A stretch of 64,000 bases of DNA from the NCBI RefSeq assembly GCF_000621725.1, contig NZ_JHXM01000007.1:1-64000 (forward strand), given 5' to 3'. Positions 6,496 through 8,013 of this stretch are shown here, one piece after another. Position numbers and translations under genes: made by a program. Source of the DNA: Xylanibacter brevis ATCC 19188. Lineage in GTDB: Bacteria; Bacteroidota; Bacteroidia; Bacteroidales; Bacteroidaceae. The notes beneath the pieces were generated by a model that made no database searches, had not been told where the DNA came from, and saw only the letters and a list, made by a program, of their open reading frames with translations. The first letter of the stretch is position 1. Each line of letters begins with the position of its first letter.

Positions 6496-8013
6496 TTAGA
6501 ACGCGAGGCAGGCACGGACATAGTCAGTGGTATAGTCGTCCGCATAGTCGTCAGTCCAATTGCCGGTGGAGAAAGTGCAGCTCCACGCGCAGTCATAACC
6601 AGTTGTCGTAGACGACCAGTAGTAATTCGACCCCGACAGCATATTCGTGCCGCCGACACTGCTGAATCCATCGCGCAGGGCGCTGAAACCGCCTGCAGCG
6701 TTAATCATATTATTCCACTCGTCCTTGGTGGCCAGTTTCCATGTGCAGCCAGTAACGGCCGGTGTCTTGCCAGAGCATGTGGAATTGGCTGATTTCCAAG
6801 TCATTTTTTCACTCTCGTCGGCCAGAGCGAGTGCTAGGCCGTGACCGTCACTAACGTAGCATACCAAAGCCACGGCGGTCACGCCTTCGGGCAGGTTGTT
6901 CTTGTCGGCGGCTGCGTAAGTCTTGCCGTCGGAGCCTACTAACATGCCAACCGTTGCCTCGGCCAGGGTCTTGCCTTCAGTAACAGACTTCTTCTTCTCG
7001 GCCTTCACGCCGATGACTTTCTTCGTGCCGGTGTAGGTGACGGTGACGTTGGTGCCCATCTTGGCCTTTTCGGCAGGAGTGGTGCTCCAGAGTTCGAGCT
7101 CGGGAGTTTCATCAGAGAAGCGAACGCCGTAGATGTTCTTCAGCACGGTGACTTCGATGCACTGGGGCTCGCTGTCGGCATAACCTTCGCCAGCCTGGAT
7201 GTAGTACCATACATAAACGGTGAAGTCCTCTGTGTCGGCATAGCCGGCTGCGGTGGGCACGGTAGCGGTCCATCCCTCAGCGGTGGTGGCAGGAGCCTGC
7301 TCGAGCTGAGCGGTGGTAGCGAAATACTTCACGGTGCCCTGCTCGGTCTGACCGGCAGTGACGATGGCCTTGTCCTCGCCAGCGATGATGCCTTCAGCGG
7401 CTGCGGGAGCTGTAGCGAACTGTGCCACGGGGATATAGTTGGCGCTGATCTTTGCACTGGATGCAGGCATGGTGAAGGTCCATGTGTTAGCGGCCTGACC
7501 AGCTGTCAACTCGATGCCGTTGACCACAGGGATGCTGCTGGGAGCCCTTTTTGAGGCTGCCGACCATGTGGTGTAAGCCTTGGCAGCAACGCCGTTAACA
7601 GCCCAGCCATCCTGTGGGGTGACGATGACGGTTATCACGTCGCCCTCTTCGGCACGGGTCGCGGTGTTCTCGCCTTTCTTGAAGGCTATGTCACCATGAG
7701 CGTTGTCGCCGACGGTAAGGTCGAAAAAGGTTTTCAATACCAGATGGAGTGTTGACTCCTTCTGGATGTTGTAGTCGGCCAGTGTCTTGTTGTCCTCGAG
7801 GACTTGGCTTGCAAAGATGAGTTTCTGCATTTCTACAGGGATGCCTTCCTTGTCCTCGATCTTGGCTTTGACGTTCTCGAAGCTGTCACTGGGTTCCACC
7901 TCAACGGTGATGGTCTTTCCCGTCACTGTCTTGACGAATATCTGCATGGCGCTCATGCTCATGGCAATCATGAGTAGGGTGAGCAATGAAAATATCTTTT
8001 GTTTCATATTCAT
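6496..8013 (-). CDS. Secreted protein with N-terminal eukaryote-like ubiquitin domain fused to surface modules
   Basis: 505 residues. Residues 1-22 form a signal peptide ending MSMSA; cleavage there would expose MQIFVKTVTGKTITVEVEPS, the start of a ubiquitin fold at residues 23-94. Compared with human ubiquitin, 56 of 72 positions are the same. Ile44, Val70 and Lys6, 11, 27, 29, 33 and 63 (ubiquitin numbering) are kept, while Lys48 is Gln and Gly47 is Ser. The conjugating LRGG tail is absent: VLK runs straight into TFFDLTVGDNAHG, an InlB-like module shared with the gene at 1-2575. A module shared with the 4907-6439 protein follows, and then a C-terminal FISUMP/DUF1566-like domain (residues ~375-505: HGLALALADES, NYYWSSTTTG, VRACLAF). 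It sits third from the end of the six-gene series. Bacteroides fragilis is known to secrete a ubiquitin homologue; I know of no fusion of this form. No conjugation role is likely. Confidence 0.93.
   Translation of the reverse strand: MNMKQKIFSLLTLLMIAMSMSAMQIFVKTVTGKTITVEVEPSDSFENVKAKIEDKEGIPVEMQKLIFASQVLEDNKTLADYNIQKESTLHLVLKTFFDLTVGDNAHGDIAFKKGENTATRAEEGDVITVIVTPQDGWAVNGVAAKAYTTWSAASKRAPSSIPVVNGIELTAGQAANTWTFTMPASSAKISANYIPVAQFATAPAAAEGIIAGEDKAIVTAGQTEQGTVKYFATTAQLEQAPATTAEGWTATVPTAAGYADTEDFTVYVWYYIQAGEGYADSEPQCIEVTVLKNIYGVRFSDETPELELWSTTPAEKAKMGTNVTVTYTGTKKVIGVKAEKKKSVTEGKTLAEATVGMLVGSDGKTYAAADKNNLPEGVTAVALVCYVSDGHGLALALADESEKMTWKSANSTCSGKTPAVTGCTWKLATKDEWNNMINAAGGFSALRDGFSSVGGTNMLSGSNYYWSSTTTGYDCAWSCTFSTGNWTDDYADDYTTDYVRACLAF
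7732..7947 (-). other. Ubiquitin domain (residues 23-94 of the 6496-8013 product)
   Basis: The 72 codons encode MQIFVK at the predicted mature N-terminus, IENVKAKI-like FENVKAKIEDKEGIP, KLIFASQVLED, and TLADYNIQKESTLHLVL. Differences from human ubiquitin are V8, V15, S22, F23, E31, V38, E39, M40, K42, S47, Q48, V49, N53, K54, A57 and K72. The reading frame is continuous with the bacterial signal peptide and the downstream module, so this is not a stray contaminant read. Confidence 0.95.

What the first reader, a model, noticed from the sequence alone, without database searches (positions are those of the whole stretch)
7732..7947. Ubiquitin domain at the mature N-terminus of a secreted bacterial surface protein
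Seen: a 72-residue stretch matching human ubiquitin at 56 positions, right after a signal peptide whose predicted cleavage would make MQIFVK the mature start. Ile44, Val70 and six of seven lysines are kept; Lys48 and the LRGG tail are lost. It is fused in frame to bacterial modules shared with neighbouring genes. Known: B. fragilis secretes a ubiquitin-like protein thought to come from a eukaryote. Inference: a horizontally acquired eukaryotic ubiquitin was turned into a displayed decoy, adhesive or inhibitor of host or protist ubiquitin enzymes, or a toxin domain. A fusion of this kind, lacking a conjugating tail, is new to me.
Basis: partly seen in the sequence, partly recalled or inferred. 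Interest (0 to 1): 0.95.

Follow-up and report, generated by a model that had tools for sequence, protein, structure and literature searches.

The report
Exported ubiquitin-headed adhesin-like bacterial protein
A Prevotella-group bacterium carries a gene that puts the eukaryotic protein ubiquitin directly behind a predicted export signal and in front of a lectin-like tail; the same layout turns up in many unrelated bacteria, so exporting ubiquitin, likely to meet eukaryotic cells or rival bacteria, may be a more common bacterial tactic than the one known case suggests.

Summary
In detail: ORF 6496-8013(-) is a predicted signal peptide joined without linker to a 72-residue ubiquitin (56/72 identical to human, Pfam E 9e-27) lacking the RGG end, then bacterial modules. 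It is no assembly chimera: a metagenome protein is 96% identical over the whole fusion. (1) It is not a singleton. A genome-collection scan gave 442 relatives; of the best 80, 70 have a predicted signal peptide ending exactly at ubiquitin Met1, and 64 of those 70 lack the full RGG. Passengers vary: autotransporter barrels, S-layer domains, IPTL-CTERM tails. A close match lies on the complete Ruminococcus albus 7 plasmid, another in a phage tail-gene cluster. (2) The C-terminus is a lectin-like domain related to the Legionella Lcl adhesin domain. (3) In Prevotellaceae a conserved signal-ubiquitin head is recombined onto different passengers, and the native glycosylation site D21-T22-I23 is altered in 19 of 19, in several ways. 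My reading: an exported, non-conjugatable ubiquitin presented by an adhesin-like tail, likely a ligand or decoy for eukaryotic ubiquitin-binding proteins. BfUbb-type bacterial antagonism and a mere stable cap remain open. Function is untested. New variant of a known kind (BfUbb).

The parts
6496..8013 (-). whole gene, 505 aa: signal peptide - ubiquitin - beta-rich domain - middle region - Lcl/FISUMP-like domain
   Evidence: 96% identical full-length relative P0122
7948..8013 (-). predicted signal peptide, 22 aa, ending ..SMSA directly before ubiquitin Met1
   Evidence: hydrophobic core, Ala at -1, Met at -3 (strict AXA not met); its first codons with the upstream DNA (window 7968-8256) are 89% identical to L128 8188-8475, where they head a gene with no ubiquitin in the 857 residues held
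7732..7947 (-). ubiquitin domain, residues 1-72; 56/72 identical to human; RGG missing
7435..7731 (-). protein residues 95-193: domain shared with the genome's second ubiquitin protein (C18), which matches residues 2-193 at 44%
   Evidence: tblastn
6994..7434 (-). protein residues 194-340: region partly shared with neighbour ORF 4907-6439 (33% over residues 174-376)
6499..6993 (-). protein residues 341-505: Lcl C-terminal / FISUMP-like, C-type-lectin-like domain
   Evidence: Pfam Lcl_C E 9.8e-6, below its cut-off; ten-sequence profile to PDB 8q4e E 7.4e-7; model pLDDT 90.4, best fold match 8q4e_A, prob 1.00, E 4.1e-6
8014..8156 (-). upstream intergenic stretch with a GC-rich inverted repeat
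   Evidence: by eye
3127..4812 (-). neighbour: BspA-type LRR protein with C-terminal tail ..YDLNGRKL..KGVYLFNGKKVVVK
4907..6439 (-). neighbour, 510 aa: Lcl/FISUMP-type domain at the front, then a passenger whose DNA (5135-5752) is 88% identical to the passenger of the ubiquitin gene of genome G1042
8157..10901 (-). neighbour, 914 aa: InlB-type repeats (Flg_new_2), same kind of tail
10961..13003 (-). neighbour, 680 aa: Lcl_C-like domain (below cut-off) plus beta-helix repeats; 37% to residues 295-505 of the ubiquitin protein

Best explanation
ORF 6496-8013(-) encodes a ubiquitin placed directly behind a predicted signal peptide and in front of bacterial modules ending in a lectin-like domain, one of a widespread bacterial class with this layout; it is likely exported and would act as a ubiquitin head that cannot be conjugated, presented to ubiquitin-binding proteins of eukaryotes such as protists or a host animal. 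Shown by sequence: the layout, the loss of RGG, its recurrence in distant bacteria with lineage-specific passengers, slower change of ubiquitin than of its passengers, and shuffling of a signal-ubiquitin head onto different passengers. Inferred: export and signal cleavage at Met1; passage to the cell exterior; the tail docking on glycans; the ubiquitin head engaging eukaryotic ubiquitin readers (binding domains, deubiquitinases, E1/E2) once the bacterium or its product is taken up or touches the cell. Because RGG is missing and the C-terminus is blocked, it would be bound but neither attached nor cut off by ordinary deubiquitinases.
For: Zero-linker junction in 70 of 80 named loci (the best 80 of 442), among them 14 of the 15 records that are not MAGs by title (L100 a single cell by its label, recalled), plus the complete R. 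albus 7 plasmid and one- and two-contig genomes of the window's genus, G117 and G1042. RGG incomplete in 64 of those 70. Of 77 members scanned (each cut to ubiquitin plus at most about 490 residues) 16 have an autotransporter barrel, 4 SLH, 5 IPTL-CTERM and 1 a T9SS tail: the ubiquitin is at one end, a surface device often at the other. Selection: in 92 of 93 passenger-homologous pairs ubiquitin has the lower nonsynonymous difference (one tie); in the 64 non-Prevotellaceae pairs (29 loci, not independent, many autotransporters) with ubiquitin pS of 0.6 or more, ubiquitin is 74-99% identical (median 92%) and the passenger 22-76% (median 36%). Exposed ubiquitin residues are 89% human-like in 72 non-Prevotellaceae domains. 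Export in Prevotellaceae: the glycosylation motif D-S/T-[AILVMT] native to ubiquitin at 21-23 is intact in 72 of 72 other domains and lost in 19 of 19 Prevotellaceae ones, 18 by exactly one change, of several kinds (column shuffles P 5e-5; thinned at 80% identity, 11 rows, P 0.006; at 75%, 8 rows, P 0.05). 17 passengers hold 3 motifs against 42.7 expected, reversed motif 45, other control motifs at 0.64-1.34 of expectation. Gingipains, surface T9SS cargo of P. gingivalis, lack this motif altogether (PMC8729774 passages). T9SS translocon SprA is encoded. Tail: Lcl-type domain; Lcl binds glycosaminoglycans of eukaryotic cells (PMC11162425 passages). Of the 80 record titles 4 name rumen, reticulum or omasum, 1 cattle, and 9 bear RUG labels (rumen sets, recalled); phagotrophic ciliates live there (recalled).
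Against: In Prevotellaceae the ubiquitin surface is diverging: exposed residues 63% human-like; the Ile44 patch (L8, I44, H68, V70: 0.79, 0.63, 0.68, 0.53) is hardly better kept than other exposed sites, while the 1-17 hairpin face is (0.84 against 0.56, P 0.002), so canonical Ile44-patch readers are not specifically indicated. Window against P0122 the head differs MORE than the rest (8/72 against 12/411, Fisher P 0.005). This member has no recognised anchor or T9SS tail, so surface display is unproven. The one studied relative, BfUbb, acts on bacteria. Only 14 of 398 genomes of the genus have the domain, so it is dispensable. Motif evidence is not clean: the window's D-S-F is only partly broken, as Phe is occasionally accepted (PMC12871550 passages); L134 has gained a motif at position 47; T9SS cargo of T. 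forsythia is heavily glycosylated; proteins near the loci that my crude rule calls not exported are also low (15 against 26.8) and non-Prevotellaceae passengers slightly (99 against 126.6). Recapture of fresh eukaryotic ubiquitin could mimic slow evolution.
Confidence: 0.37

Rival explanations
1. BfUbb-type antibacterial protein: the exported ubiquitin head binds a periplasmic or surface protein of competing Bacteroidales and inhibits them, the variable tail choosing or docking on the target cell, as in polymorphic toxins with a constant head.
For: BfUbb, also with the signal peptide directly before Met1 and without Gly-Gly, inhibits 13 of 40 B. fragilis strains as a synthetic 76-aa protein, while bovine ubiquitin does not (PMC5705921 section 8). 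Constant signal-ubiquitin head with swapped tails. Faster change of the head between window and P0122 would fit an arms race. Two Dyella records have stand-alone ubiquitins with predicted signal peptides (L047, L090).
Against: The head is C-terminally blocked by about 410 residues here, whereas BfUbb is free. No immunity-like partner was seen among ORFs of 120 aa or more near 18 loci (smaller genes were not compared; BfUbb is said to need none). Found under titles of many phyla including Gram-positives and archaeal bins, where one bacterial target is unlikely.
Confidence: 0.27
2. Structural cap: ubiquitin is simply a small, very stable, protease-resistant fold captured by chance and kept as an N-terminal cap or folding aid of exported proteins, with no ligand.
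For: In Prevotellaceae buried residues are 93% kept but exposed ones only 63%, and the head is shuffled among passengers.
Against: Outside Prevotellaceae exposed residues stay 89% human-like although synonymous sites are near saturation in many pairs; a cap would not need that. Repeated choice of ubiquitin rather than other stable folds is unexplained.
Confidence: 0.2
3. The head serves export itself, for example as a recognition or timing element for the Sec or type IX machinery, which would explain why the 1-17 hairpin next to the cleavage site is the best-kept face in Prevotellaceae.
For: Exposed hairpin residues 0.84 human-like against 0.56 elsewhere, P 0.002.
Against: Other exported proteins of the same arrays lack it and share similar signal peptides; the layout occurs in bacteria with unrelated secretion systems.
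Confidence: 0.1
4. Contamination or recent random captures of eukaryotic DNA without function.
For: Some of the 80 contigs look like that: L065 holds four ubiquitins in a row, and L052, L058, L082, L085, L091, L103, L109 show no signal peptide. MAG titles are unreliable (L035 and L093 passengers are 94% identical under titles of different phyla).
Against: Complete or nearly closed records (R. albus 7 plasmid, G117, G1042), bacterial passengers in the same frame, two diverged copies in the window's own genome, and slow change of ubiquitin relative to passengers.
Confidence: 0.03

Closest known systems
BfUbb (ubb), exported ubiquitin of Bacteroides fragilis (PMC3352274, parts 1-2 of 4 read; PMC5705921, sections 8 and 11 read)
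   Same: Eukaryotic-type ubiquitin; signal peptide ends exactly at Met1; terminal Gly-Gly missing; Bacteroidales
   Different: BfUbb is a free 76-residue protein, not found in other Bacteroides by its authors, who in 2017 call B. fragilis one of a few bacteria with a eukaryotic-like ubiquitin; here the head is part of a 483-residue mature protein with a lectin-like end, in an array of modular exported proteins, and the layout recurs widely. BfUbb keeps two glycosylation motifs (its authors' statement); Prevotellaceae heads have lost the native one
Lcl, Legionella collagen-like adhesin, C-terminal domain (PDB 8q4e; PMC11162425 passages)
   Same: C-terminal domain related by profile and fold
   Different: No collagen-like stalk; the head is ubiquitin; ligand unknown
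Secreted ubiquitin effectors of plant-parasitic nematodes (as described in the discussion of PMC5705921)
   Same: Signal peptide before ubiquitin, C-terminal extension
   Different: Eukaryotic, 12-residue extension that is cut off; here no cleavable RGG and a long bacterial tail
Bacterial ubiquitination-like (Bil/Bub) and Pup systems (recalled)
   Same: Small modifiers in bacteria, the first with ubiquitin-like folds
   Different: Intracellular conjugation machinery; here predicted export, not conjugatable, true ubiquitin sequence
Polymorphic toxins (recalled; PMC3482391 passages on ubiquitin seen)
   Same: Constant N-terminal part, variable C-terminal modules exchanged by recombination
   Different: Tails here look like binding modules, not toxins; no immunity-like partner seen among ORFs of 120 aa or more

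Membership tests
BfUbb-type exported bacterial ubiquitin | Ubiquitin-type sequence with signal peptide ending at Met1 | tested here: met
   (predicted cleavage; Met at -3 fails the strict AXA rule)
BfUbb-type exported bacterial ubiquitin | No C-terminal Gly-Gly | tested here: met
BfUbb-type exported bacterial ubiquitin | Mature protein is a free 76-residue ubiquitin | tested here: not met
   mature protein 483 aa
BfUbb-type exported bacterial ubiquitin | Inhibits other Bacteroidales | not testable with these tools
   needs an assay
BfUbb-type exported bacterial ubiquitin | Direct sequence relationship to ubb | not tested
   no record recognisable as ubb in the listed rows (lists capped, G genomes unnamed); its letters were not typed
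Conjugatable ubiquitin | Ubiquitin fold | tested here: met
Conjugatable ubiquitin | LRLRGG end, free after processing | tested here: not met
   ...HLVLKTFFDLT
Lcl_C / FISUMP domain (C-terminal part) | Pfam or NCBIfam score above curated cut-off | tested here: not met
   26.3 against 34.9 bits; TIGR02145 E 0.007 on part of the domain, 17.1 against 41.65 bits
Lcl_C / FISUMP domain (C-terminal part) | Profile and fold match to the solved Lcl domain | tested here: met
   8q4e E 7.4e-7; Foldseek prob 1.00, TM 0.49 by query and 0.61 by target
T9SS cargo | Genome encodes the T9SS translocon | tested here: met
   SprA 2628 bits
T9SS cargo | C-terminal sorting domain (TIGR04183) on this protein | tested here: not met
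   ends ..VRACLAF, no hit; the KGxYIxNGKKVVxK tails of neighbours and relatives are not matched either
Polymorphic toxin | Constant head, recombining tails | tested here: met
Polymorphic toxin | Toxic C-terminal domain with adjacent immunity gene | tested here: inconclusive
   no toxin family in the window protein in Pfam or NCBIfam; only ORFs of 120 aa or more were compared between loci

The most novel reading that the evidence does not exclude
Bacteria across the tree have repeatedly turned ubiquitin into an exported head: a signal peptide joined to Met1, the conjugating tail removed, and whatever outer-surface module the lineage owns (autotransporter, S-layer, sorting tail, lectin-like domain) attached behind it. 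The head is carried by phages and plasmids, kept free of glycans in Prevotellaceae, and shown to eukaryotic predators or hosts as a ubiquitin that can be read but neither attached nor removed: a general ubiquitin-mimicry strategy of free-living and commensal bacteria.
Probability: 0.3. Interest if true: 0.95.

Novelty: new variant of a known kind. Interest (0 to 1): 0.82.

Why it matters
Ubiquitin is treated as the hallmark eukaryotic modifier, with B. fragilis as the well-known bacterial exception. If exported ubiquitin heads are a recurrent bacterial design, they form a new kind of contact between bacteria and eukaryotes (rumen ciliates, grazers, animal hosts) or a new antibacterial principle, and they give a ready set of natural, non-conjugatable ubiquitin fusions. 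The ecology of BfUbb could then be tested outside one species, and gut and rumen proteomics would need to expect bacterial peptides identical or nearly identical to host ubiquitin.

Tried and rejected
Assembly chimera: rejected by P0122 and by relatives in near-closed genomes. Single local oddity: rejected. Purely bacterial ubiquitin clade: not supported; the 72-column tree is mostly unresolved (78 of 121 inner branches open), the Prevotellaceae rows need 5 changes, but one origin is not ruled out (only the 30 commonest of 42 distinct eukaryotic first domains were taken, and 8 rows, four scrambled eukaryotic ones and L023, L120, L121, L122, were dropped before the build). T9SS sorting tail: TIGR04183 matches neither this protein nor the tails of its kin. 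Protein-database searches were swamped by eukaryotic polyubiquitins (7308 and 3678 hits, best 120 listed); the third allowed search was not used. Annotated phage collection: no match; plasmids: 3 records, one of them close. A special partner gene: among ORFs of 120 aa or more, one further family is shared by 3 loci (L017, L127, L128; exported modular proteins again) and one by 2 (L130, L133). The full-length model is poor beyond residue 125 (mean pLDDT 47.9), so only the ubiquitin part and, from a separate job, the C-terminal domain are used. Literature: no paper on this wider class in keyword searches of CC-licensed PMC texts; subscription papers are not covered, and Jiang et al. 2023 (Nat Microbiol) on BfUbb was seen only in a reference list.
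Full report
WHAT IS THERE. The finding is real and exactly placed. ORF 6496-8013 on the minus strand encodes 505 residues. Residues 1-22 are a predicted signal peptide, residues 23-94 (window 7732-7947) a ubiquitin with 56 of 72 residues identical to human, Pfam E 9e-27. Ile44, His68 and Val70 stay, Leu8 becomes Val, six of seven lysines stay, Lys48 and the RGG end are gone. The model of this part superposes on single-ubiquitin PDB chains mostly at 0.5-0.7 angstrom. 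A metagenome protein, P0122, is 96% identical across the entire fusion, so the junctions are not an assembly error. It differs from the window more in the ubiquitin head (8 of 72) than in the rest (12 of 411; Fisher P 0.005); P0122 still has Lys48, so its loss here is likely recent.

THE REST OF THE PROTEIN. Behind ubiquitin come a domain shared with a second ubiquitin protein of the same genome (contig C18; 44% over residues 2-193 of the window protein), a middle region shared with the neighbouring 510-residue protein, and a C-terminal domain of about 165 residues. That last domain is below the Pfam cut-off for Lcl_C, but a ten-sequence profile finds the solved Legionella Lcl domain at E 7.4e-7, and a confident model (pLDDT 90.4) has it as its only fold match under E 0.001, followed by C-type-lectin-like proteins, a Bacteroides fimbrial protein and intimin or invasin domains at weaker E. 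Lcl binds glycosaminoglycans on eukaryotic cells (PMC11162425, passages). No sorting-tail model, lipobox or barrel was found on the window protein. The genome encodes the type IX translocon SprA, and several relatives and neighbours end in a KGxYIxNGKKVVxK tail that resembles such signals by eye but is not matched by TIGR04183.

A MEMBER OF A SHUFFLING FAMILY. The gene lies in an array of modular proteins with signal peptides. In 11 of 18 Prevotellaceae loci the ubiquitin gene has neighbours of the same loosely clustered modular kind (counted by eye). Heads and tails recombine. Between genomes G1042 (L128) and G117 (L017) the DNA from just before the start codon to just behind ubiquitin is 88-100% identical in 60-base steps and then drops to 20-53%; L016 and L020 go from 95-97% over the head to about 40% more gradually. 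The passenger of the G1042 ubiquitin gene is 88% identical in DNA over 621 bases to that of the window's neighbour ORF 4907-6439, which has an Lcl-type domain in front in place of ubiquitin. The upstream region and first signal-peptide codons of the window's ubiquitin gene (7968-8256) are 89% identical to a stretch that heads a gene without ubiquitin in G1042 (857 residues held). So ubiquitin is one of several exchangeable heads behind shared signal peptides.

HOW WIDE IT IS. Counts include the window's own genome. In its genus 14 of 398 genomes have a ubiquitin-family match, 6 of 175 among the high-quality ones; G117 has one contig and G1042 two. In the family sample 7 of 399, 6 over the cut-off; in the order sample 4 of 295, 2 over the cut-off; in the class sample 3 of 395, 2 over the cut-off. 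None of the 14 control genomes has one. Locus L104, titled uncultured Prevotella from cattle, is the same contig as genome G039 of the window's genus, which places the window in the Prevotella group; the window's own habitat is not known. A scan of about 85,000 species genomes with the domain alignment gave 442 relatives, of which the tool kept the best 80. By my rule (hydrophobic core, small residue at -1, AXA-type residue at -3, start codon 15-60 residues upstream) 70 of 80 have a signal peptide ending exactly at Met1; the 10 others are L052, L058, L065, L077, L082, L085, L091, L102, L103, L109; L077 and L102 have an AXA-like end but no start codon in range, the rest no signal peptide. Of those 70, 60 have lost the RGG region, 4 keep RG only and 6 keep RGG. 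Of 19 Prevotellaceae rows 13 pass the same rule; four, the window included, fail only by Met at -3, one has Thr at -1, and one (L023) is diverged without Met1. Passengers of 77 of the 80 (3 left out as multi-ubiquitin, partial or odd; each cut at 560 residues in all) include 16 autotransporter barrels, 4 S-layer, 5 IPTL-CTERM, 1 T9SS tail, InlB-type, SdrD and GLUG repeats. The sample is biased to sequences near the query, and MAG titles are not reliable: two passengers 94% identical carry titles of different phyla (L035, L093). But records that are not MAGs by title suffice: R. albus 8, a Clostridiales strain, Lachnospira multipara, two Saccharibacillus, two Dyella, Paracidovorax, Pseudohaliea, Methylolobus, Pseudovibrio, Conexibacter, Aquiluna, a Prochlorococcus single cell (14 that pass the rule; Rhodoferax lacus, the fifteenth, is L102), and the complete plasmid pRUMAL01 of R. 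albus 7, where the gene is annotated 'ubiquitin family protein'. Dyella sp. OK004 encodes a stand-alone ubiquitin with a predicted signal peptide and an intact LRGG. One viral contig (L118) has a signal-ubiquitin-autotransporter gene behind phage tail genes (tail terminator, minor tail protein, tail assembly chaperone), so phages can carry it; the annotated phage collection had no match.

IS IT USED? In 92 of 93 pairs with homologous passengers the ubiquitin head has the lower nonsynonymous difference, with one tie. In the 64 non-Prevotellaceae pairs with ubiquitin pS of 0.6 or more (29 loci) ubiquitin identity is 74-99%, median 92%, and passenger identity 22-76%, median 36%. These pairs are not independent, and recapture of fresh eukaryotic ubiquitin cannot be excluded. 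In 72 non-Prevotellaceae domains exposed residues are on average 89% human-like; in 19 Prevotellaceae domains buried residues are 93% and exposed ones 63% human-like, with the exposed part of the N-terminal hairpin best kept (0.84 against 0.56 elsewhere, permutation P 0.002) and the Ile44 patch not specially kept (the list of buried residues is recalled). In the 11 Prevotellaceae pairs ubiquitin is 65-99% and the passenger 38-86% identical. So function through the whole surface is likely outside Prevotellaceae, and is narrower or changing inside.

A SIGN OF EXPORT. Bacteroidota glycosylate exported proteins at D-(S/T)-(A/I/L/V/M/T) (PMC8550257, abstract start in the listing; PMC12871550 passages). 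Ubiquitin brings one such site, D21-T22-I23. It is intact in 72 of 72 other domains, including 5 titled or placed as other Bacteroidota (one of them, L037, doubtful), and lost in 19 of 19 Prevotellaceae domains, 18 of them by exactly one change: D21 to N or Y, T22 to L or P, I23 to F or H (the nineteenth by two). One of the 19, L134, has a new motif at position 47. Shuffling the three columns keeps 5.0 sites on average and none in 5 of 100,000 shuffles; thinned to 16, 11 or 8 unlike rows P is 7e-5, 0.006 or 0.05. The shuffles do not model the tree. With the wider motif that sometimes accepts Phe, the window and P0122 would count as weak sites. The 17 passengers counted hold 3 such motifs where 42.7 are expected (13 against 60.7 with the wider motif); the reversed motif (45) is not depleted, and other control motifs stand at 0.64-1.34. 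Other sets in the same script: exported neighbours 24 against 77.7, neighbours not called exported 15 against 26.8, the window's exported proteins 33 against 39.7, its others 20 against 15.5, non-Prevotellaceae passengers 99 against 126.6. In P. gingivalis gingipains lack the motif and abundant surface proteins are rarely glycosylated while periplasmic ones are; but in T. forsythia T9SS cargo is heavily glycosylated (PMC8729774, passages). I read this as moderate evidence that the ubiquitin proteins are exported and kept glycan-free; it does not prove where they end.

MECHANISM. Best-supported: an exported ubiquitin head that cannot be conjugated, presented by an adhesin-like tail, as ligand or decoy for eukaryotic ubiquitin-binding proteins (0.37; lowered by 0.01 on recheck for the mixed motif evidence). 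Main rival: BfUbb-type antagonism between bacteria (0.27); BfUbb has the same signal-Met1 junction and lacks Gly-Gly, and its synthetic form inhibits 13 of 40 B. fragilis strains (PMC5705921 section 8). A periplasmic isomerase as its target is recalled, not read. Then a mere stable cap (0.2) and an export element (0.1). None of this was tested on protein.

NOVELTY. BfUbb makes it a new variant of a known kind. Its authors wrote in 2017 that B. fragilis is one of a few bacteria with a eukaryotic-like ubiquitin. The wide class, the fusion to surface modules and the head-swapping were not found in print in the searches named under Tried and rejected, which cover CC-licensed PMC texts only.

Noticed in passing
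Prevotellaceae ubiquitin proteins (L001, L013-L022, L127-L129, L132-L134) and exported neighbours: The Bacteroidota O-glycosylation motif is strongly depleted in these modular proteins (3 observed against 42.7 expected in 17 ubiquitin passengers; 24 against 77.7 in 37 exported neighbours), a possible marker of surface cargo.
   Followed up: partly
window 4813-4906, 6440-6495, 10902-10960: Three array genes have a nearly identical upstream leader (CGCGTATATAATAYAAAAGGTATAAACAACATAAAGAAATACAATAT) running into the start codon; the ubiquitin gene has a different one.
   Followed up: no
window 8014-8156 and 3068-3128: GC-rich inverted repeat (CCCTCCCTGTTGAGGGAGGG type) between array genes; parts of it recur at 3068-3128 and in related genomes (L128, L017); may be recombination sites or terminators.
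   Followed up: no
L013 2403-5831 (own genome, contig C18): Second ubiquitin protein of the genome, 1143 aa, with a diverged head and a KGLYIQNGRKVVVK tail.
   Followed up: partly
L118 3890-5335: Signal-ubiquitin-autotransporter gene behind phage tail genes, with copies of a short tail-gene segment on both sides (about 3400-3600 and 5400-5590), suggesting an insertion.
   Followed up: partly
L138 3923-4663 (R. albus 7 plasmid pRUMAL01): Named, complete record with a signal-ubiquitin fusion on a plasmid typed as mobilizable; a convenient laboratory strain.
   Followed up: partly
L047 6001-6228 (Dyella sp. OK004): Stand-alone ubiquitin with a predicted signal peptide and an intact LRGG end, an analogue of BfUbb in another phylum.
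   Followed up: no
window 19618-29184: 3188-aa protein with a predicted signal peptide, a tail of the same look (GVYIFNGRKQVIK) and 13 O-glycosylation motifs, unlike its smaller neighbours.
   Followed up: no
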